The translations under genes were made by a program, and so were the position numbers. A model generated the notes under the pieces. The model worked only from the letters and a program-made list of their open reading frames with translations. It was not told the origin of the DNA and searched no databases. Below, one piece after another: positions 53,479 to 60,566 of a DNA stretch of 64,000 bases; within the stretch, counting starts at the first letter, position 1; each line of letters begins with the position of its first letter. The stretch is from Pimelobacter simplex (lineage in GTDB: Bacteria > Actinomycetota > Actinomycetes > Propionibacteriales > Nocardioidaceae), in the NCBI GenBank assembly GCA_016803235.1, contig JADCLI010000016.1:46405-110404 (forward strand). Reading direction: 5' to 3'.

Positions 53479-54309
53479 TCACGCCGCGAGTTCGGCGTAC
53501 GTGTCGCGGAGCACGGCGCGGACCGCGCCCGGATCGTGCATCACCTGCGCCCAGGTGAACCGCAGCACGCGCCAGCCAGTCGCCGTGAGGGCGGTGTAGC
53601 GCTCGCAGTCGGCCTCGAAGGCGCGCTTGTCCTTGCCGTGGAACTCCCACGACTCGGCCTCGAGCACCACCCCGGCCACAGGGTCGACCAGGTCCGGGTG
53701 GAGCACGAGTCCTCGGGCGCGGATCTCGAACTGCGGCACCACGGGTATCGCCTCCTCGATGACCAGCGCTCGCAACGCCGACTCGAAGGGGTTGGCTGCG
53801 CGCTTGGTCGCGTGCAGCAGAACCTGGCGGTCGCGCGCGGTGGCCGCGGTCTGGAGGCCGTCGTACGTCAGCGCGTGGTGACGCAGGGCCGAGTCGGCCA
53901 CGGCCAGTGCATCCGCGAACGGCAGGTCGCGTGCGCACTGGAGCACGGTCGCGAGCGGGCTGGTCGCCCAGCCGTCGGTCGCGGTCCCGCGGGGGAGGCG
54001 GCGTGCGTCGGCGGAACTGACGCTGGGGAGCGGACGCCCGTGGGGTACGCCGACCTGGGGGCGCCGCGGTGGTACGCGCACCTGCCAGCCCCAGTGCAAC
54101 GCGGCGCTGAGGTGCATCACGTAGCCGCCGACCAGCACGGCTGCGCGTCTGGCCTGGTCCGCGGCCGGGAGCGCGTAGCGACCGTGCCCGGCACGGAGGA
54201 TCGTGCGTCGGTCCAGTGCCGTGCGGAGCCGTCTGCGGGAAGTGAGCAGGAGCAGGTCGTGCGCGCTGGCGACACCTCCCAGGCGCTCGAGTGCCTCCAC
54301 CGGACCCAC
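53479..54309 (-). CDS. DUF559 nuclease-like protein with AbiEi-like winged helix
   Basis: 276 residues from GTG 54309 (ATG 54426 would add a low-complexity Arg-rich 39-residue leader). N-terminal winged-helix/AbiEi-antitoxin-like segment: EALERLGGVASAHDLLLLTS then ALDRRTILRAGHGRYALP. C-terminal DUF559, Vsr/PD-(D/E)xK-like: HPDLVDPVAGVVLEAESWEF, FEADCERYTALTATGWRVLR and FTWAQVM. The HPDL(V)D and E-x-(E) acidic residues suit a metal nuclease site. Such orphan proteins are common in actinobacteria; role unknown. No toxin partner adjacent. Confidence 0.78.
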   Translation of the reverse strand: MGPVEALERLGGVASAHDLLLLTSRRRLRTALDRRTILRAGHGRYALPAADQARRAAVLVGGYVMHLSAALHWGWQVRVPPRRPQVGVPHGRPLPSVSSADARRLPRGTATDGWATSPLATVLQCARDLPFADALAVADSALRHHALTYDGLQTAATARDRQVLLHATKRAANPFESALRALVIEEAIPVVPQFEIRARGLVLHPDLVDPVAGVVLEAESWEFHGKDKRAFEADCERYTALTATGWRVLRFTWAQVMHDPGAVRAVLRDTYAELAA

Positions 54310-54473
54310 CCGCTCACTCTCTCCGAGCTCGGGCGTTGGTGCATCCGGCTCTCCACAGGCCAGGTCGCGCACCGGCCCCCGCCCGACACGCCGCCGGCTC
54401 GGCGTGTCGGCGCGCCGGGGATGCACGATCTGGCCGGTCGTGGGCGGATGACGGCACCGGCTCCGGGCGGAGG

Positions 54474-54479
54474 TACCCT
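54474..54479 (+). promoter_or_regulatory. Candidate -10 of the cobalamin-uptake operon
   Basis: TACCCT placed about 7-10 bases before the presumed riboswitch 5' end. ATGACG at 54448-54453 is a weak -35 candidate (spacer 20). Confidence 0.4.
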
Positions 54480-54483
54480 GATC

Positions 54484-54660
54484 CGGTTACATCGAGAACA
54501 CGCCCGTGGTGGGGGAAGCCGGTCGAATCCCGGCGCTGACCCGCAACCGTGGACCGCCCCTCGGGGAGCGGTGAGCCGGAGCACCCGTCATGGCGCGTCC
54601 TGACATCAACGCTGTCGCGGAGAGCAGCGGGTCAGTGGCACAGGAGACCTGGGCCCCGCC
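54484..54660 (+). promoter_or_regulatory. Cobalamin (B12) riboswitch
   Basis: Class I cobalamin aptamer. The conserved core lies at 54514-54551: GAAGCCGGTC-GAATCCCGGC then GCTGACCCGCAACCGTG. GTGAGCCGGAGCAC (54571-54584) follows, and the terminal B12 box CAGGAGACCTGGGCC lies at 54641-54655. About 30 bases separate the B12 box from ATG 54688. No T-tract terminator is present, and CCCG/CGGG pairing reaches up to the GGGAAGG ribosome site, so control of translation initiation is likely. Adenosyl- or other cobalamin binding is expected to shut off the uptake operon. Confidence 0.9.
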
Positions 54661-54687
54661 CGTTCGGTTGCAGCGGGAAGGCACCAC

Positions 54688-56160
54688 ATGTCCACTCCCA
54701 CGTTCGTACGCCGGGCGGTCGCTGCCGTCGCCGGTGGTGCCGTCGTCGCCGGCGGCCTGATGGCGGTCGCCCCGGCCCCGGCCGCGCACGCCGACAGTGC
54801 CGCGCAGAGCGCCGCGGCCACCTGGCTCGCCGGCGAGCTCGACGTCGACGGCCTGCTCCACGGTGACGTGGCCAAGACCATCGACTTCGCGCTGGCGCTC
54901 GACGAGATCGGCGGCCACCAGGCCACGCTCGACAAGATCAAGGCAGGCGTCGACGCCGAGGTCGACACGTACGCCGTCGGCGGCGTCAGCATCGCCCAGG
55001 CGAACCTCTTCTACCGGGCGATCGACGTCGACCCGGCGACGAAGGCGGGAAACCTGGTCACCAAGCTCGAGGCTGCGGTGGACAACACCACCGGTCAGCT
55101 GGACGAGGCGTTCCCTGGAGCGTGGTCGCAGGGTCTCGCTGTCCGCGCGCTGGACGCCGCCGACAGCGCCGAGCTCGCGCTGGCCACCGACTCGCTGATC
55201 GACGATTTCGAGTGCCCGACGGGCGGCTGGGGCTACTACTTCAACGGGTCCTGCACTGCCGACCCGGACGACACTGCCGACATGCTCTTCGCGCTGCTCC
55301 CGCAGAAGGGCACGAGCGCGAAGATCGACGACGCCATCGCCCGCGGCGTCGCCTGGCTCAAGGCCGCGCAGAAGGCCGACGGTGGTTTCGAGAACTTCGT
55401 GGTGAACGCGAGCTCGACGGGTCTCGCGGCGCACGCGCTGCTGCTCGCCGGCGCCACCACCGAGGGGCAGCGGGCGGCCGCCTGGCTGCGCCGCCACCAG
55501 GTGTCGGGGACCGCGTGCGACCTCCTGCTCCAGGGTGAGGCAGGTGCCGTCGGCGGGACCGAGGAGATCATCAAGGAAGGCCGCGACTTCGGCATCGACC
55601 CCGCCGCGGCCGGGTTCGACTGGTACCTCGCGACGGCCCAGTCGATCGTCGCGCTGCAGGCCGCGCCGGCGTCGACCGCGCCGCTGGCGCTCTCGCCCCG
55701 CTTCGTCCACGTGTCCAGCACCGCGAGCCTCCAGGTCACCGGTCTCGCCGCCGGGGAGAACGGCTGCGTGAGCGTCGCAGGCGCGGCCTCGCGGGTCCAG
55801 GGTGGCGCTACCACGACCGCCCCGTTCACGGTCCCGGCCGCTGTCGGGGAGTACCAGGTCACCGTGACGGCGCTCGGCCGCAGCACGACGGCGACCGTCG
55901 AGGCCCTCGACGCGACCAAGCTGAAGGTGAAGGTCCCGGCGAAGGTCAAGGCGAACAAGAAGGCCACCGTCAAGGTCAAGGGCCTCGCCGCCGGCGAGAG
56001 CGTGACCGTCAAGATCGGCAAGAAGGCCGTCACCGGGACCGCGAAGGCCAACGGCGTCGCCAAGGTGAAGATCAAGGTCAAGAAGAAGGGCAAGGCCAAG
56101 GTCAAGGTGGTCGGTCAGTTCCCCGACCGCAAGGGCAAGGCCATCACCCGGGTCGTCTGA
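54688..56160 (+). CDS. Secreted alpha-toroid protein, transcobalamin alpha-domain-like
   Basis: 490 residues. Signal peptide ending APAAHA. Residues about 35-330 form helical repeats of the prenyltransferase/squalene-cyclase type: GGWGYYFNGSCTADPDDTAD, WLKAAQKADGGFENFVVNAS and WLRRHQVSGTACDLLLQG. This alpha6/alpha6 barrel is also the cobalamin-binding alpha domain of intrinsic factor and transcobalamin. The C-terminal 150 residues are beta-rich with Lys/Val repeats (KVKVPAKVKANKKATVKVKG) that may bind wall polymers; no LPXTG is present. First gene behind the B12 riboswitch, overlapping the next gene by one base. Cobalamin capture is inferred. Confidence 0.82.
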   Translation: MSTPTFVRRAVAAVAGGAVVAGGLMAVAPAPAAHADSAAQSAAATWLAGELDVDGLLHGDVAKTIDFALALDEIGGHQATLDKIKAGVDAEVDTYAVGGVSIAQANLFYRAIDVDPATKAGNLVTKLEAAVDNTTGQLDEAFPGAWSQGLAVRALDAADSAELALATDSLIDDFECPTGGWGYYFNGSCTADPDDTADMLFALLPQKGTSAKIDDAIARGVAWLKAAQKADGGFENFVVNASSTGLAAHALLLAGATTEGQRAAAWLRRHQVSGTACDLLLQGEAGAVGGTEEIIKEGRDFGIDPAAAGFDWYLATAQSIVALQAAPASTAPLALSPRFVHVSSTASLQVTGLAAGENGCVSVAGAASRVQGGATTTAPFTVPAAVGEYQVTVTALGRSTTATVEALDATKLKVKVPAKVKANKKATVKVKGLAAGESVTVKIGKKAVTGTAKANGVAKVKIKVKKKGKAKVKVVGQFPDRKGKAITRVV

Positions 56161-57023
56161 TGACCTTCAGCCACACCCTGCGCACGGCAGCCGCGACGAT
56201 CCTCGTCGCGGCTGCCGTCGTGCTGCTTCCACACGTGCCGGCATCGGCGGCAGCCTGCAGTGGGAGCACCGGCATCACCGTCGTGGTCGACTCCAACCAG
56301 CTCGGCGCGGGGATCAGCGCGGGCTGCGATCCCGACGGCGGCGTCGCCGCGAACAACTTCGCCGACGCCGGCTACAAGATCGAGTACAGCCAGGCAGCCG
56401 GCATGAGCGGCTTCGTCTGCAAGGTCAACGGCAGCCCGAGCGACGGTGACTGCACCGAGACCGACGCGTACTGGAGCCTGTGGTGGTCCGACGGGAAGTC
56501 CGGAGCCTGGACCTATGCGGCGCGTGGGGTGAGCAGCCTACGGGTCCCCGACGGCGGCTACGTGGCGTTCGCGTGGCACCAGGGCAGCGGCCAGGCGACG
56601 CCGCCCGACGTGGCCGCAACCCCGCGGTTCGTCGAGCCGAAGCCGACGCCGACCCCCACGAAGGCCTCGACGCCGAAGCCCACCAAGAAGCCCAGCCCCA
56701 AGGCGGCCCCGAGCCCGACCTCGGCGACGCCGAGCGCGTCCCCGAGCGCCAGTGCGACCCCGTCCGCGACGGGCACCACGGCGACCCCGTCCGCGACGCC
56801 GACCGCGACGCCGACCGAGGCGGCACCGACGGAGCCGAGCCAGACCACGACCGTCGGGCTGCCCTCGATCGACGAGATCACCGACGGCCCCCGGGCGACG
56901 GCGGCCGACGCTGACGGCGACGAGGACGCGGGCGGGTTCCCGGCGTGGCTGGGGATCGGGCTGGTCGTGGTCGTGCTGGGGGCGGCGGGCGCCGTGCCCG
57001 TGCTGCGCCGGCGAGGACGATGA
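56160..57023 (+). CDS. Surface DUF4430 protein, transcobalamin beta-domain-like
   Basis: 287 residues. Signal peptide to ASAAA. Residues about 38-150 resemble the DUF4430/transcobalamin C-terminal beta domain: DAGYKIEYSQAAGMSGFVCK, DAYWSLWWSDGKSGAWTYAA and VPDGGYVAFAWHQG, with paired cysteines. A long Pro/Thr/Ser/Ala linker follows, then a C-terminal membrane helix FPAWLGIGLVVVVLGAAGAV and RRRGR, giving surface anchoring. Second gene of the riboswitch operon. Together with its neighbour it would complete a two-domain B12-binding fold, here split into two polypeptides. Confidence 0.82.
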   Translation: MTFSHTLRTAAATILVAAAVVLLPHVPASAAACSGSTGITVVVDSNQLGAGISAGCDPDGGVAANNFADAGYKIEYSQAAGMSGFVCKVNGSPSDGDCTETDAYWSLWWSDGKSGAWTYAARGVSSLRVPDGGYVAFAWHQGSGQATPPDVAATPRFVEPKPTPTPTKASTPKPTKKPSPKAAPSPTSATPSASPSASATPSATGTTATPSATPTATPTEAAPTEPSQTTTVGLPSIDEITDGPRATAADADGDEDAGGFPAWLGIGLVVVVLGAAGAVPVLRRRGR

Positions 57024-58117
57024 GGCTGGCGCGGGACCTCCACCCCGTGGCGTGGTGGGTCTGGGCGGTGGGGCTGGCGGTGGCGGCCTCGTGCACGACC
57101 AACCCGCTGTTGCTCCTCGTCCTGCTCGGCGTGATCAGCCTCGTCGTGCTCACCTGTCGCTCCGACCAGCCGTGGGCGCGCTCGTTCCGGCTCTACGTCT
57201 GGCTGGGCGTGGTGGTGCTCGTGGTGCGGATCCTGTTCCGGGTGCTGCTCGGCGGAGACGCACCGGGGCAGGTCCTGTTCACGCTGCCGAGCATCCCGCT
57301 GCCGGACTGGGCGGCGGGCATCTCGCTGCTCGGGCCGTTCACCCGTGAGGAGCTGCTCGCGGCGACCTACGAGGGACTGCGCCTGGCGACCCTGCTGATC
57401 GCGGTCGGCGCGGCCAACGCGCTCGCCAACCCGAAGCGGCTGATGAAGTCGTTGCCGCCCGCCCTCTACGAGATCGGTACGGCGATGACGGTCGCCATCA
57501 GCGTCGTCCCACAGCTCGCCGACAGCGCCCGCCGGGTGCGCGCGGCGCAGCAGCTGCGCGGGGGACCGGAGGGCCGGTTCCGGCGGATCCGCGGCGTCCG
57601 ACGGCTGCTGGTCCCGATCCTCGAGGACGCCTTCGACCGCTCCCTCGCGCTCGCCGCGGGGATGGACGCCCGCGGATACGGCCGCACCGGCGAGCTGACC
57701 GCACAGCAGCGACGCAGCACCGGGGCGCTGATCATCGCCGGCCTGCTCGGTGTCTGCGTCGGCGTCTACGCCTTCCTCGACAGCACCGCGCCGCGGGTCC
57801 TGGCGCTGCCGATGCTCGCACTAGGGATGCTCCTCGCGCTCGGCGGCTTCGCGCTGGCGGGCCGGCGGGTGCAGCGCACCCGGTACCGCCCCGACCGCTG
57901 GCAGGTCCCCGAGCTCGTGGTCGCCGCATCCGGGATCGCCGCAGGCACGGGCATGTGGGCGCTCCAGCGCTGGGAGAGCGCGGTCGCCCACCCCGGGGTC
58001 CTGGCCCGGCCCGACCTCTCGCTGCTCGCCCTGGTCGCCGCGCTGGTCGCGGTCGTCCCGGTCTGGGCCGCCCCGCTGCCGGTGACCGCCCAGCGCCGTG
58101 AGGAGGCACTCGTCTGA
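57020..58117 (+). CDS. ECF transporter T component (CbiQ/EcfT-like)
   Basis: 365 residues, about seven membrane helices, longer than usual (about 265) because of an extra C-terminal helical block. Coupling helices carry the Ala-Arg-Gly motifs: SARRVRAAQQLRGGPEGRF and LALAAGMDARGYGRTGEL. NALANPKRLMKSLPPALYEI is also family-typical. ATG 57020 overlaps the DUF4430 stop by 4 bases, and its own end overlaps the ATPase gene by one base (TGATG). Links the ATPases to the S component in the membrane. Confidence 0.92.
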   Translation: MRLARDLHPVAWWVWAVGLAVAASCTTNPLLLLVLLGVISLVVLTCRSDQPWARSFRLYVWLGVVVLVVRILFRVLLGGDAPGQVLFTLPSIPLPDWAAGISLLGPFTREELLAATYEGLRLATLLIAVGAANALANPKRLMKSLPPALYEIGTAMTVAISVVPQLADSARRVRAAQQLRGGPEGRFRRIRGVRRLLVPILEDAFDRSLALAAGMDARGYGRTGELTAQQRRSTGALIIAGLLGVCVGVYAFLDSTAPRVLALPMLALGMLLALGGFALAGRRVQRTRYRPDRWQVPELVVAASGIAAGTGMWALQRWESAVAHPGVLARPDLSLLALVAALVAVVPVWAAPLPVTAQRREEALV

Positions 58118-59748
58118 TGCTCGAGCTGCGCGGGATCACGCTGACCTACGAGGACCCGGAGACCACCGGCCGGACCACCGTCCTCGACGGGGTCGATCTC
58201 ACCGTGACCGACGGCGAGCTCGTCGTCCTGGCCGGTCCGACCGGCGTGGGCAAGTCGACGCTGCTCGGCGTGGTGGCCGGGCTGGTGCCGTCGTACTCCG
58301 GAGGCACCCTCACCGGCGACGTCCTGCTCGACGGCGCCAGCATCGTCGCGCAGCCGGCGCGGGAGCGCGCCCACGCGATCGGGTACGTCGGCCAGAACCC
58401 CGCAGCGTGGTTCGTCACCGACACGGTGGAGGAGGAGCTGGCGTTCGGCATGGAGCAGCTCGGCCTGCCCGCACCGACGATGCGCCGCCGGGTGGAGGAG
58501 ACCCTCGACCTGCTCGGCATCGCCGACCTGCGCCATCGCGACCTGCGCACCCTCTCGGGCGGCCAGCAGCAGCGCGTCGCGATCGGAGCCGTGCTCACCA
58601 TCCACCCGCGGCTGTTGGTGCTCGACGAGCCGACGTCCGCGCTCGACCCCACCGCGGCCGAGGACGTGCTCGCGACGCTGACGCGGCTGGTGCACGACCT
58701 CGGCGTCTCGGTGCTCGTCGCCGAGCACCGTCTGGAGCGCGTGGTGCCCTTCGCCGACCGGCTCTGCCTGCTCCGCCCCGGCGGGCGGGTCGAGATCGGC
58801 GAGCCAGCGGAGGTGCTCCGGGACGCCCCGATCGCGCCGCCGCTGGTCGAGCTCGGCCGGCTCGCCGGCTGGCAGCCGCTCCCGCTGACCGTCCGCGACG
58901 CCCGCCGTCGCGCCCCGGCACTGAAGGAGCGGCTGGGCGAGCCACCGCAGCGCGAGCAGCCGTCCGCGACCGCCGAGCCCGCCGTCGACGTACGACGCCT
59001 CGTGCTCGCCCACGGCAGGGTCCCGGTCCTCCGCGAGGTCGACCTGGCGCTGCGTCCCGGCACCGTCACCGCCCTCATGGGCCGCAACGGGTCCGGGAAG
59101 TCGACCCTGCTGTGGGCGCTCCAGGGCCGCCACAGCGCAACCACCGGCACCGTCCGGGTCGCCGGCCAGGACCCCGCGGCGCTCAAGCCCGAGGAGCGAC
59201 GGACGACGACCGGCCTGGTGCCGCAGAGTCCCGCCGACCTGCTCTACCTGGAGACGGTCGCGGGGGAGTGCGCCGCCGCGGACGGCTCGGCCCGCGCGCG
59301 GAGCGGCACCTGCCGTGCCCTGCTCGACCGGCTCGCGCCCGGCATCGACCCCGAGCGGCATCCGCGCGACCTGTCCGAGGGACAACGGCTCGCGCTGGCG
59401 GTGGCGATCGTCCTCACCACCCGTCCGCCGGTGCTGCTGCTCGACGAGCCGACCCGTGGCCTGGACTACCCCGCCAAGCGCGCCCTCGCCGAGCTGCTCC
59501 GTGAGCTCGCGGCCGAGCCCGGTGCCGCCCGGGCGGTGCTCGTCGCCACCCACGACGTGGAGTTCGTCGCGCAGGTCGCCGACGACGTCGTGGTTCTCGC
59601 CGAGGGCGAGGTCGTCTCCGCGGGCCCGGTGGTGCCGACCGTCTCCGAGTCGCCCGCCTTCGCTCCGCAGGTCACCAAGGTGCTCGGCGCCGGCTGGCTG
59701 CGCGTCGACGACGTCGCCGCGCGGCTGGCGGCCGAGGTCGCACGATGA
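58117..59748 (+). CDS. Fused ECF ATPases A and A'
   Basis: 543 residues with two ABC domains. First: Walker A GPTGVGKSTLLGVVAG, signature LSGGQQQRVAIGAV, Walker B LLVLDEPTSALDP. Second (from about 290): Walker A GRNGSGKSTLLWALQG, signature LSEGQRLALAVAI (Gly to Glu change), Walker B VLLLDEPTRGLDYP, and switch His in VATHDVEF. Between halves is a short Pro-rich linker. Powers the importer encoded by its neighbours. Asymmetric signature suggests unequal ATP sites. Confidence 0.93.
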   Translation: MLELRGITLTYEDPETTGRTTVLDGVDLTVTDGELVVLAGPTGVGKSTLLGVVAGLVPSYSGGTLTGDVLLDGASIVAQPARERAHAIGYVGQNPAAWFVTDTVEEELAFGMEQLGLPAPTMRRRVEETLDLLGIADLRHRDLRTLSGGQQQRVAIGAVLTIHPRLLVLDEPTSALDPTAAEDVLATLTRLVHDLGVSVLVAEHRLERVVPFADRLCLLRPGGRVEIGEPAEVLRDAPIAPPLVELGRLAGWQPLPLTVRDARRRAPALKERLGEPPQREQPSATAEPAVDVRRLVLAHGRVPVLREVDLALRPGTVTALMGRNGSGKSTLLWALQGRHSATTGTVRVAGQDPAALKPEERRTTTGLVPQSPADLLYLETVAGECAAADGSARARSGTCRALLDRLAPGIDPERHPRDLSEGQRLALAVAIVLTTRPPVLLLDEPTRGLDYPAKRALAELLRELAAEPGAARAVLVATHDVEFVAQVADDVVVLAEGEVVSAGPVVPTVSESPAFAPQVTKVLGAGWLRVDDVAARLAAEVAR

Positions 59749-60566
59749 GCCAGGTCCGCGCGGCCGCCGTGCCGCTGCGGCTGCGGTCCGGTGTCGTCCT
59801 CGCGATCACGTCGCTCATCGGGCTGCTGATGCTGGCGTGGCCGCTGCTGCTCGACGTCCCCGCCGACACCGAGCGGGTCGACCCGCCGTTCCTCTTCCTG
59901 CTCCTGCTGCCGGTCATCCTCGGCGTCGTGCTCGCCGAGATGAGCGAGGGCGGCATGGACGCCCGGGTGCTCGCGGTGCTGGGCGTCCTCAGTGCGGTCA
60001 ACGCCGTGCTCCGACTGGTCAGCGCGGGTACGGCGGGCCTGGAGCTGGTCTTCTTCCTGCTGATCCTCGGCGGCCGGGTGTTCGGGGCGGGGTTCGGCTT
60101 CGTGCTCGGCTGCACGTCGCTGTTCGCGTCCGCGCTGATGACCGCCGGTGTCGGCCCGTGGCTGCCGTTCCAGATGCTCGTCGCCGCCTGGGTCGGCATG
60201 GGCGCCGGGCTGCTCCCGCGCCGGGTCCGCGGCCGCGGGGAGATCGCCCTGCTGGCGGCGTACGGCGTCGTGTCGGCCTACCTCTACGGCCTGCTGATGA
60301 ACCTGCAGGGCTGGCCGTTCATGGCCGGCATCCAGGTGCCGGGGCAGGACTCGACCGAGATCTCCTACGTCCCGGGCGCCGGCGTGCTCGACAACCTGCA
60401 CCACTTCGTGCTTTACACCCTGCTCACCTCGACCGGCGGCTGGGACACCGGTCGCGCGATCACGAACGCGCTCGCGATCGTCCTGCTCGGGCCGGCGGTC
60501 CTGGTCACCCTGCGGCGCGCCGCCCGCAAGGCCCGGATCGAGCCGGAGACTGCTACGGCTCGATGA
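59745..60566 (+). CDS. ECF transporter substrate-binding S component, predicted cobalamin
   Basis: 273 residues, about six to seven membrane helices: LAITSLIGLLMLAWPLLLDV, FLLLLPVILGVVLAEMS, LVFFLLILGGRVFGAGFGF and LLGPAVLVTLRRAARK at the end. ECF S-like loop GFVLGCTSLFASALMTAGVG before GPWLPFQMLVAAWVGMGAGL. Substrate is inferred as cobalamin (or cobinamide) from the riboswitch and the transcobalamin-like proteins, not from residues. ATG overlaps the ATPase gene by 4 bases. Its 3' end overlaps the convergent dehydrogenase gene by 14 bases. Confidence 0.87.
   Translation: MSQVRAAAVPLRLRSGVVLAITSLIGLLMLAWPLLLDVPADTERVDPPFLFLLLLPVILGVVLAEMSEGGMDARVLAVLGVLSAVNAVLRLVSAGTAGLELVFFLLILGGRVFGAGFGFVLGCTSLFASALMTAGVGPWLPFQMLVAAWVGMGAGLLPRRVRGRGEIALLAAYGVVSAYLYGLLMNLQGWPFMAGIQVPGQDSTEISYVPGAGVLDNLHHFVLYTLLTSTGGWDTGRAITNALAIVLLGPAVLVTLRRAARKARIEPETATAR

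What the first reader, a model, noticed from the sequence alone, without database searches (positions are those of the whole stretch)
54484..60566. Riboswitch-controlled surface capture plus ECF import system for cobalamin
Seen: a complete cobalamin aptamer, then five genes joined by 1- to 4-base overlaps: two exported proteins, an ECF T component, fused A-A' ATPases and an S component. Known: B12 riboswitches regulate uptake or synthesis, and ECF modules import vitamins. Inference: the two secreted proteins gather cobalamin at the surface and pass it to a new or poorly described ECF-B12 importer. BtuF-type binding protein and BtuCD are absent.
Basis: partly seen in the sequence, partly recalled or inferred. 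Interest (0 to 1): 0.9.

Follow-up and report, generated by a model that had tools for sequence, protein, structure and literature searches.

The report
Bacterial transcobalamin-like vitamin B12 importer
A soil actinobacterium carries a gene set, led by a vitamin-B12-sensing RNA, that looks like a two-piece version of our own B12 carrier proteins placed in front of a membrane import pump, which may be how such bacteria capture scarce B12.

Summary

The two exported proteins look like separated halves of transcobalamin/intrinsic factor. The second, unmatched in Pfam, has a predicted fold whose 19 best PDB hits are transcobalamin, haptocorrin or intrinsic factor (17) and 3u7z (2). Six relatives carry both halves fused, in either order; one fusion's 14 best PDB hits are these carriers. 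In 67 of 68 assessable related loci a riboswitch hit precedes the T gene. In two genomes outside the class, a true DUF4430 protein sits among homologues of the other four genes behind a cobalamin riboswitch.

Best reading: a membrane-tethered split transcobalamin that captures cobalamin for a dedicated ECF importer. Binding, transport and hand-off are untested. Burroughs et al. (2007) predicted B12 scavenging by SLBB-CbiO-CbiQ operons, so this is a new variant of a predicted kind.

The parts
54462..54606 (+). Cobalamin riboswitch aptamer, short form
   Evidence: Rfam RF00174 35.0 bits; session model R1 101.7 bits at 54480-54607 (this sequence was in the model's training set)
54607..54687 (+). 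Leader between aptamer and first gene; control mode (transcriptional or translational) not determined
   Evidence: RNA folding of 54608-54700 and 54480-54700 no better than shuffles (z -0.49 and +1.17)
54688..56160 (+). Gene 1 (P0001): probably exported alpha/alpha-toroid protein with a Lys-rich tail; proposed equivalent of the alpha domain of transcobalamin/intrinsic factor
   Evidence: Pfam SQHop_cyclase_C 32.4 bits, cut-off 26.1; family profile hits toroid enzymes in the PDB; family HMM matches the toroid part of the natural fusion L119
56160..57023 (+). Gene 2 (P0002): probably exported beta-grasp domain, Pro/Thr-rich spacer, C-terminal membrane helix; proposed equivalent of the beta domain of transcobalamin/intrinsic factor
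   Evidence: AlphaFold2 of residues 26-160, pLDDT 84.7; Foldseek top 19 PDB hits are TC/HC/IF or 3u7z; hydropathy peaks at residues 10 and 264
57020..58117 (+). Gene 3 (P0003): ECF T component (CbiQ family)
   Evidence: PF02361 E 1.4e-13
58117..59748 (+). Gene 4 (P0004): fused ECF ATPases A-A'
   Evidence: two ABC_tran stretches, E 6.7e-55; best NCBIfam hits are the ECF ATPase models, below their cut-offs
59745..60566 (+). Gene 5 (P0005): ECF S component, the likely membrane substrate binder
   Evidence: PF12822 36.8 bits, cut-off 30.7; relatives in 82 of 296 genomes at E <= 1e-8

Best explanation
This is a dedicated cobalamin (or cobamide) scavenging system. When cobalamin is scarce the riboswitch permits expression (inferred from the usual sense of such switches). 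Gene 1 (alpha/alpha toroid) and gene 2 (transcobalamin-type beta-grasp domain, held on the membrane by a Pro/Thr-rich stalk and a helix) act together outside the membrane and sandwich one cobalamin between them, as the two domains of animal transcobalamin do. The pair passes the vitamin to the S component (gene 5), which the T component and the A-A' ATPase (genes 3, 4) drive to release it inside. Shown here by computation: riboswitch and genes, their conserved linkage, the predicted beta-domain fold, natural fusion of the two secreted halves in relatives. Inferred: ligand binding, joint binding site, hand-off, transport, direction of regulation.
For: (1) Gene 2's domain, folded from a 36-row alignment with the window sequence first, has among 350,542 PDB chains 17 TC/HC/IF chains and two 3u7z chains as ranks 1-19 (E 9.7e-04 to 0.10); rank 20 is an unrelated DIX domain. 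(2) Six ORFs among the 80 named loci carry both halves in one chain: toroid-beta in L119 and L150, beta-toroid in L136, L137, L141 and L153. (3) The L119 fusion model (pLDDT 91.6) has ranks 1-14 all HC/TC/IF (E 1.1e-08 to 2.6e-07). (4) Riboswitch: R1 hit upstream of the T gene in 67 of 68 loci with more than 250 bases upstream of the first family gene (54 of the 55 not used to train R1); 83 of 91 hits outside the window lie just before a family gene (63 toroid, 18 beta, 2 T), including stand-alone toroid or beta genes away from the ECF genes. By Rfam alone at gathering score: before the main cluster in 13 of 24 loci sent (tallied by hand). (5) Beta family in 50 of 296 Actinomycetota genomes; all 50 are among the 59 with a strong S-component match, 43 of 50 within 8 kb. 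(6) 19 of 23 genomes with only a weak S match have a DUF4430 gene within 6 kb of it. Two of these, of one family, read in full (L190, L191), run: cobalamin riboswitch (88.8 and 106 bits), beta-propeller protein, DUF4430, T, A-A', S, toroid. (7) Profile comparison of the beta family with DUF4430 is collinear over 77 columns, E 0.001; a comparison of the beta family with the toroid family gave 5 columns, E 0.23.
Against: No experiment. Only rank 1 reaches E <= 0.001, and rank 20 follows at E 0.13. The fusion model superposes on whole carriers at TM 0.34-0.39 (query-normalised), rmsd about 20-22 A, so the closed two-domain pocket is not reproduced; a squalene-hopene cyclase follows at rank 15 with E 2.7e-07 and a better TM of 0.47. 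The toroid-beta order was seen only in two metagenome-assembled contigs; of the six fusions L136 and L141 are from isolates. By sequence the beta profile does not find TC/HC/IF in the PDB up to E 10, the toroid profile not up to E 0.01, and only 1 of 36 beta members hits DUF4430, at E 0.029. hhalign probability is only 21.5%. The S profile finds no cobalamin S component in the PDB up to E 1. The genome also has corrin synthesis genes and a BtuCDF-type importer. B12-binding domains are in 280 of 296 genomes, so linkage to B12 enzymes says nothing. CbiC occurs in 14 of 59 S-positive genomes against 84 of 296 overall (overlap counted by hand): no clear enrichment in auxotrophs. L145 lacks a riboswitch hit. 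9 of the 59 S-positive genomes lack a beta match, though the search scored at most 12 candidates a genome.
Confidence: 0.82

Rival explanations
1. The ECF module imports cobalamin by itself through the S component; the two secreted proteins serve another B12 role (storage, buffering, keeping B12 from competitors) and do not hand it over.
For: ECF-CbrT of L. delbrueckii supports B12 growth and uptake without a capture protein (PMC5997447, passages). Stand-alone toroid or beta genes with their own riboswitch lie away from the ECF genes. 9 of 59 S-positive genomes lack a beta match.
Against: All 50 beta-positive genomes have the S component, 43 of 50 within 8 kb; the gene order is conserved.
Confidence: 0.3
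2. The system imports a cobalamin precursor or relative (cobinamide, a lower-ligand base, or other cobamides) rather than cobalamin.
For: The genome has its own corrin synthesis genes, so salvage of incomplete corrinoids could be useful; ECF-CbrT also takes cobinamide (PMC5997447, passages).
Against: The halves of a carrier that encloses a whole corrinoid argue against a small base as cargo.
Confidence: 0.2
3. A cobalt (or nickel) importer of the CbiMNQO kind under riboswitch control.
For: Gene 3 is in the CbiQ family, and some cobalt importers are under B12 riboswitches (PMC2667541, PMC3766115, passages).
Against: The S component matches PF12822, and neither it nor 16 relatives match a cobalt or nickel family; CbiQ covers ECF T components generally (recalled); a transcobalamin-type pair has no evident place in a metal importer.
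Confidence: 0.04
4. Gene 1 is a terpene (squalene-type) cyclase and its place next to riboswitch-led transport genes is incidental.
For: Best Pfam and PDB sequence hits are squalene-hopene cyclases; the window protein has DPDDTA, like the cyclase DxDD motif.
Against: It begins with an export-type hydrophobic stretch. DxDD appears in 3 of 32 relatives and at the cyclase position only in the window protein, position judged by eye. The family is linked to, and in six ORFs fused with, the transcobalamin-type domain.
Confidence: 0.03

Closest known systems
Transcobalamin-like SLBB proteins with CbiO/CbiQ operons (Burroughs et al. 2007, PMC1796856; passages and part 1 of 2 of section 7 read)
   Same: Exported beta-grasp domain, alpha/alpha toroid (fused on either side in bacteria), CbiQ- and CbiO-like genes in the operon, predicted B12 scavenging.
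   Different: The text read places this clade in low-GC Gram-positives, planctomycetes and some euryarchaea, and the word riboswitch occurs 0 times; here an actinobacterial beta family not matched by Pfam DUF4430, usually as two separate proteins, tied to a short cobalamin riboswitch.
Animal transcobalamin, haptocorrin, intrinsic factor
   Same: Toroid plus beta-grasp pair; the models of gene 2 and of a natural fusion find these first in the PDB.
   Different: Two proteins instead of one in the window, beta part probably membrane-tethered, no sequence-level match, cobalamin binding not shown.
ECF-CbrT of Lactobacillus delbrueckii (Santos et al. 2018, PMC5997447; passages read)
   Same: ECF-type importer for cobalamin.
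   Different: CbrT is predicted to share one ECF module with other S components and was active without capture proteins; here the module is in the operon with two exported proteins, and the S profile finds no CbrT chain in the PDB by sequence.
Riboswitch-preceded ECF module of acI actinobacteria (PMC5301498; passages read)
   Same: Actinobacterial ECF module behind cobalamin riboswitches, proposed as cobalamin transporter.
   Different: Exported transcobalamin-like partners are not mentioned in the passages read; whether the genes are orthologous was not tested.
BtuG surface lipoprotein of Bacteroides (PMC6143338; passages read)
   Same: Surface capture of B12 ahead of a transporter.
   Different: Beta-propeller on an outer membrane, working with BtuB; unrelated fold.

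Membership tests
Transcobalamin/haptocorrin/intrinsic factor family | Beta-grasp domain of the transcobalamin type | tested here: met
   Predicted model of gene 2: top 19 PDB hits are TC/HC/IF (17) or 3u7z (2); not visible by sequence
Transcobalamin/haptocorrin/intrinsic factor family | N-terminal alpha/alpha toroid with C-terminal beta domain in one chain | tested here: not met
   Split in the window; met in relatives L119 and L150
Transcobalamin/haptocorrin/intrinsic factor family | The two domains close on the ligand in the carrier geometry | tested here: inconclusive
   Fusion model whole-chain TM 0.34-0.39, rmsd about 20-22 A
Transcobalamin/haptocorrin/intrinsic factor family | Binds cobalamin | not testable with these tools
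   needs a binding assay
Pfam DUF4430 (PF14478) | Score over the curated cut-off | tested here: not met
   Window domain: no match; 1 of 36 family members at E 0.029
NCBIfam SCO2322 family (NF040672) | Score over the curated cut-off | tested here: not met
   Window domain 15.3 bits against 85; 26 of 36 family members match at E <= 0.1, best E 1.4e-09, their scores against the cut-off not shown
ECF transporter | T component, two ATPase domains and S component | tested here: met
   PF02361, two PF00005 stretches, PF12822
ECF transporter | Energy-dependent substrate uptake | not testable with these tools
   needs a transport assay
CbrT cobalamin S component | Sequence relationship to CbrT | tested here: not met
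   Profile A1 finds no S-component chain in the PDB up to E 1; a distant kinship is not excluded
Cobalamin riboswitch RF00174 | Score over gathering threshold | tested here: met
   35.0 bits, threshold 31.5
Cobalamin riboswitch RF00174 | Ligand response | not testable with these tools
   needs in-line probing or a reporter
BtuCDF | FecCD permease, Peripla_BP_2 binding protein, ABC ATPase | tested here: not met
   No FecCD or Peripla_BP_2 match in the five genes; a separate set exists on contig C22

The most novel reading that the evidence does not exclude
A two-protein, membrane-tethered transcobalamin that hands cobalamin to an ECF transporter: an ECF importer served by an external binding pair, foreseen in outline by the 2007 SLBB-CbiO-CbiQ prediction but not shown for any ECF importer in the passages I read. 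It is widespread in Actinomycetota, and its natural fusions in both orders show bacterial assembly of the same two-domain design that animals use for B12 transport.
Probability: 0.55. Interest if true: 0.8.

Novelty: new variant of a known kind. Interest (0 to 1): 0.64.

Why it matters
[quoted passage not shown] If true, this gives a testable identity to a nearly unnamed protein family whose operon occurs in Nocardioides, Streptomyces, Amycolatopsis, Micromonospora and others, adds a capture step to ECF transport, and provides bacterial split and fused counterparts of human B12 carriers for studying how that two-domain trap arose.

Tried and rejected
Sequence routes to identify gene 2 failed: Pfam, NCBIfam and PDB sequence search with single protein and profile; structure prediction identified it. 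The alignment for the second fold was first mis-built: MAFFT placed toroid-only rows on the beta domain; fewer beta rows cured this in a test, and A6, whose column placement was not checked again, was used. The genome-wide riboswitch list of 50 genomes was capped, so it was not used for counts; 50 of 50 had at least one match. Leader folding to find an expression platform: nothing beyond shuffles. Linkage to B12-binding proteins and to loss of B12 synthesis: uninformative. Riboswitches within 1.5 kb of the DUF4430 match in 20 loci: 0 of 20; in the two read further upstream they lie about 2.7 kb ahead of the DUF4430 ORF. Literature: 9 searches; the name SCO2322 found 0 papers. Rodionov et al. 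2009 on ECF vitamin transporters is not held; what is known of it here comes from citing papers.

Considered and rejected: a cobalt importer and a terpene cyclase (see rivals).
Full report
What is there. The window lies in a Nocardioides-like genome: the closest named loci by S component include N. carbamazepini and Pimelobacter simplex; the genome has 5.36 Mb in 82 contigs. At 54462-54606 (+) there is a cobalamin riboswitch, then five genes overlapping by 1, 4, 1 and 4 bases up to 60566. Genes 3-5 form an ECF transporter: CbiQ-type T component, two ATPase domains in one chain, and a PF12822 S component. Genes 1 and 2 begin with a hydrophobic stretch and gene 2 ends with one, so both are probably exported and gene 2 is probably anchored in the membrane behind a Pro/Thr-rich spacer (read by eye).

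What the two secreted proteins are. Gene 1 is an alpha/alpha toroid protein (SQHop_cyclase_C). Gene 2 matches nothing in Pfam above cut-off. I collected relatives with the S component as bait: the best 80 named loci were kept. HMMs of the five proteins found gene-1 family members in 64, gene 2 in 71, gene 3 in 74, gene 4 in 79 and gene 5 in 80 of the 80 loci, mostly in the order 1-2-3-4-5; some loci are cut by contig ends, and in some Streptomyces loci the toroid gene follows gene 5. The beta-domain family has four columns with cysteine in 34, 35, 35 and 35 of 35 aligned sequences, as expected of an extracellular disulfide-bonded domain.

Structure of gene 2. AlphaFold2 on the window's own gene-2 domain (36-row alignment, no templates) gave mean pLDDT 84.7 with strand-strand-helix-strand order. 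Foldseek against 350,542 PDB chains put transcobalamin, haptocorrin or intrinsic factor at 17 of ranks 1-19 and the bacterial protein 3u7z at the other two (a DUF4430-type protein by my recollection). E-values run from 9.7e-04 to 0.10, only rank 1 reaching 0.001; rank 20, a DIX domain, has 0.13. TM-scores by query are moderate, 0.41-0.54.

Natural fusions. Six ORFs in the 80 loci carry both domains: toroid then beta in L119 and L150, beta then toroid in L136, L137, L141 and L153. The toroid-beta order is that of animal carriers; both cases are metagenome-assembled contigs, while L136 and L141 are isolates. The L119 fusion modelled well (pLDDT 91.6, pTM 0.77), and its first 14 PDB hits are all haptocorrin, transcobalamin or intrinsic factor, aligned over 467-488 columns, E 1.1e-08 to 2.6e-07. 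The whole-chain superposition is poor (rmsd about 20-22 A, TM 0.34-0.39): the two domains are recognised in order, but their relative placement in the ligand-free model is not that of the closed carrier. A squalene-hopene cyclase follows at rank 15 (E 2.7e-07) with a better TM of 0.47, so the toroid alone is not diagnostic. AlphaFold2 has been trained on PDB entries that include such carriers, which is a caveat.

Regulation. Rfam at gathering score finds a cobalamin riboswitch before the main cluster in 13 of the 24 loci sent (tallied by hand). A model built from 16 such sequences, the window and 15 from 13 loci (R1), gave 92 hits over the window and all 80 loci. Of 74 loci with a T gene, 68 hold more than 250 bases upstream of the first family gene; 67 of these have a hit upstream of the T gene on the same strand, 59 directly before the first family gene; the exception is L145. 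Of the 55 loci not used for training, 54 have a hit. 83 of the 91 hits outside the window have a family gene within 450 bases downstream: toroid 63, beta 18, T 2. Stand-alone toroid, beta or fused genes carry their own riboswitch (L112, L114, L127, L129, L136, L147, L153 on the - strand; L107 at 14617; L158 at 8910), which ties the secreted proteins themselves, not only the pump, to cobalamin. In the 24 loci the 16 Rfam hits before family genes score 31.6-44.1 bits and the 6 other cobalamin hits 85.0-102.4 bits: these operons use a short aptamer type. It is not exclusive to them, since the own genome has two more short hits near its corrin genes. I did not establish ligand preference or the control mechanism.

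Co-occurrence. In 296 Actinomycetota genomes drawn evenly, the S component occurs in 82 at E <= 1e-8, 59 of them strong (weakest E 3.5e-32). The beta family (profile A3) occurs in 50 at E <= 1e-6. All 50 are among the 59; 43 have the two within 8 kb, the other seven on different contigs (Fisher p 8e-48, not corrected for kinship). 9 of the 59 lack a beta match; at most 12 candidates a genome were scored, so some may be missed.

Bridge to the known family. Of the 23 genomes with only weak S matches, 19 have a true DUF4430 (PF14478) gene within 6 kb, two on another contig, two none. I read two of these in full, both of one family outside the window's class (L190, L191): cobalamin riboswitch (88.8 and 106 bits), beta-propeller protein, DUF4430, T, A-A', S, toroid (for L191 the T, A-A' and S genes were matched by the session's HMMs only). 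There DUF4430 takes the place of gene 2's family. DUF4430 against the gene-2 family by hhalign: E 0.001, probability 21.5%, 77 collinear columns; the beta family against the toroid profile gave E 0.23. Pfam membership of gene 2 in DUF4430 is not met, so I say it has the predicted transcobalamin beta fold and works like DUF4430, not that it is a member.

Genome context. The same genome carries FecCD, ABC and Peripla_BP_2 genes behind a 107-bit cobalamin riboswitch and corrin synthesis genes (CbiC, TP_methylase, CbiJ/CobK). So the statement that BtuCDF is absent is wrong beyond the window, and the system is one of at least two candidate importers in a probable B12 producer. B12-binding domains are nearly universal in the sample (280 of 296), and CbiC is in 14 of 59 S-positive genomes against 84 of 296 overall (overlap counted by hand), so neither supports nor refutes the assignment.

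What was known. Burroughs et al. 2007 (PMC1796856; passages and part 1 of 2 of section 7) described the transcobalamin-like SLBB clade, its fusion with toroids in either order, operons with CbiO- and CbiQ-like genes, and proposed B12 scavenging; the text read places this clade in low-GC Gram-positives, planctomycetes and some euryarchaea. PMC5301498 (passages) proposed riboswitch-preceded ECF modules as cobalamin transporters in acI actinobacteria. PMC5997447 (passages) demonstrated an ECF cobalamin importer, CbrT, active without capture proteins. In nine searches (listings, of which eleven papers were opened for passages) I saw no paper that names the actinobacterial secreted pair as transcobalamin-like; most subscription literature is not held, so this is weak evidence of absence.

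Verdict. Shown by computation: presence, linkage, predicted folds, fusions in relatives. Inferred: cobalamin as ligand, joint site, hand-off, import, repression by cobalamin. It is a new variant of a kind predicted in 2007, with an untested and mechanistically interesting capture step for ECF transport.

Noticed in passing
Own genome, contig C33: 163176-163265 (+) and 176048-176189 (-) (loci L005, L004): Two further short cobalamin riboswitch hits (32.2 and 33.3 bits) near the corrin synthesis genes; what they control was not worked out.
   Followed up: no
L190:1753-4359 and L191:2550-5252: A beta-propeller (PQQ_2) + DUF5719 protein, exported by eye, is the first gene of the riboswitch-led DUF4430-ECF operons in two genomes of one family outside the window's class; it may be another B12 surface binder, analogous to the beta-propeller BtuG.
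   Followed up: partly
L189:3575-11134 (cluster of genome G146): One cluster holds a gene-2 family member, T, A-A', S, a toroid gene and, downstream, a protein with a DUF4430 match (E 4.7e-08, 1.5e-05); both beta families may coexist in one operon. A divergent 91.6-bit cobalamin riboswitch lies upstream.
   Followed up: partly
L040-L055 and others: Many of the weak gene-1 matches in other actinobacteria may be ordinary squalene-type cyclases rather than members of this system (L047 and L051 do have gene 2 and 3 relatives beside them).
   Followed up: no
window 55261-55278 (gene 1, DPDDTA): The window toroid keeps a cyclase-like DxDD motif that the 31 aligned relatives lack at that place, judged by eye; meaning not tested.
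   Followed up: partly
window 53479-54426 (-): A divergent gene just upstream has weak matches to MTES_1575/DUF559 nuclease-like families; no evident link to the operon.
   Followed up: no
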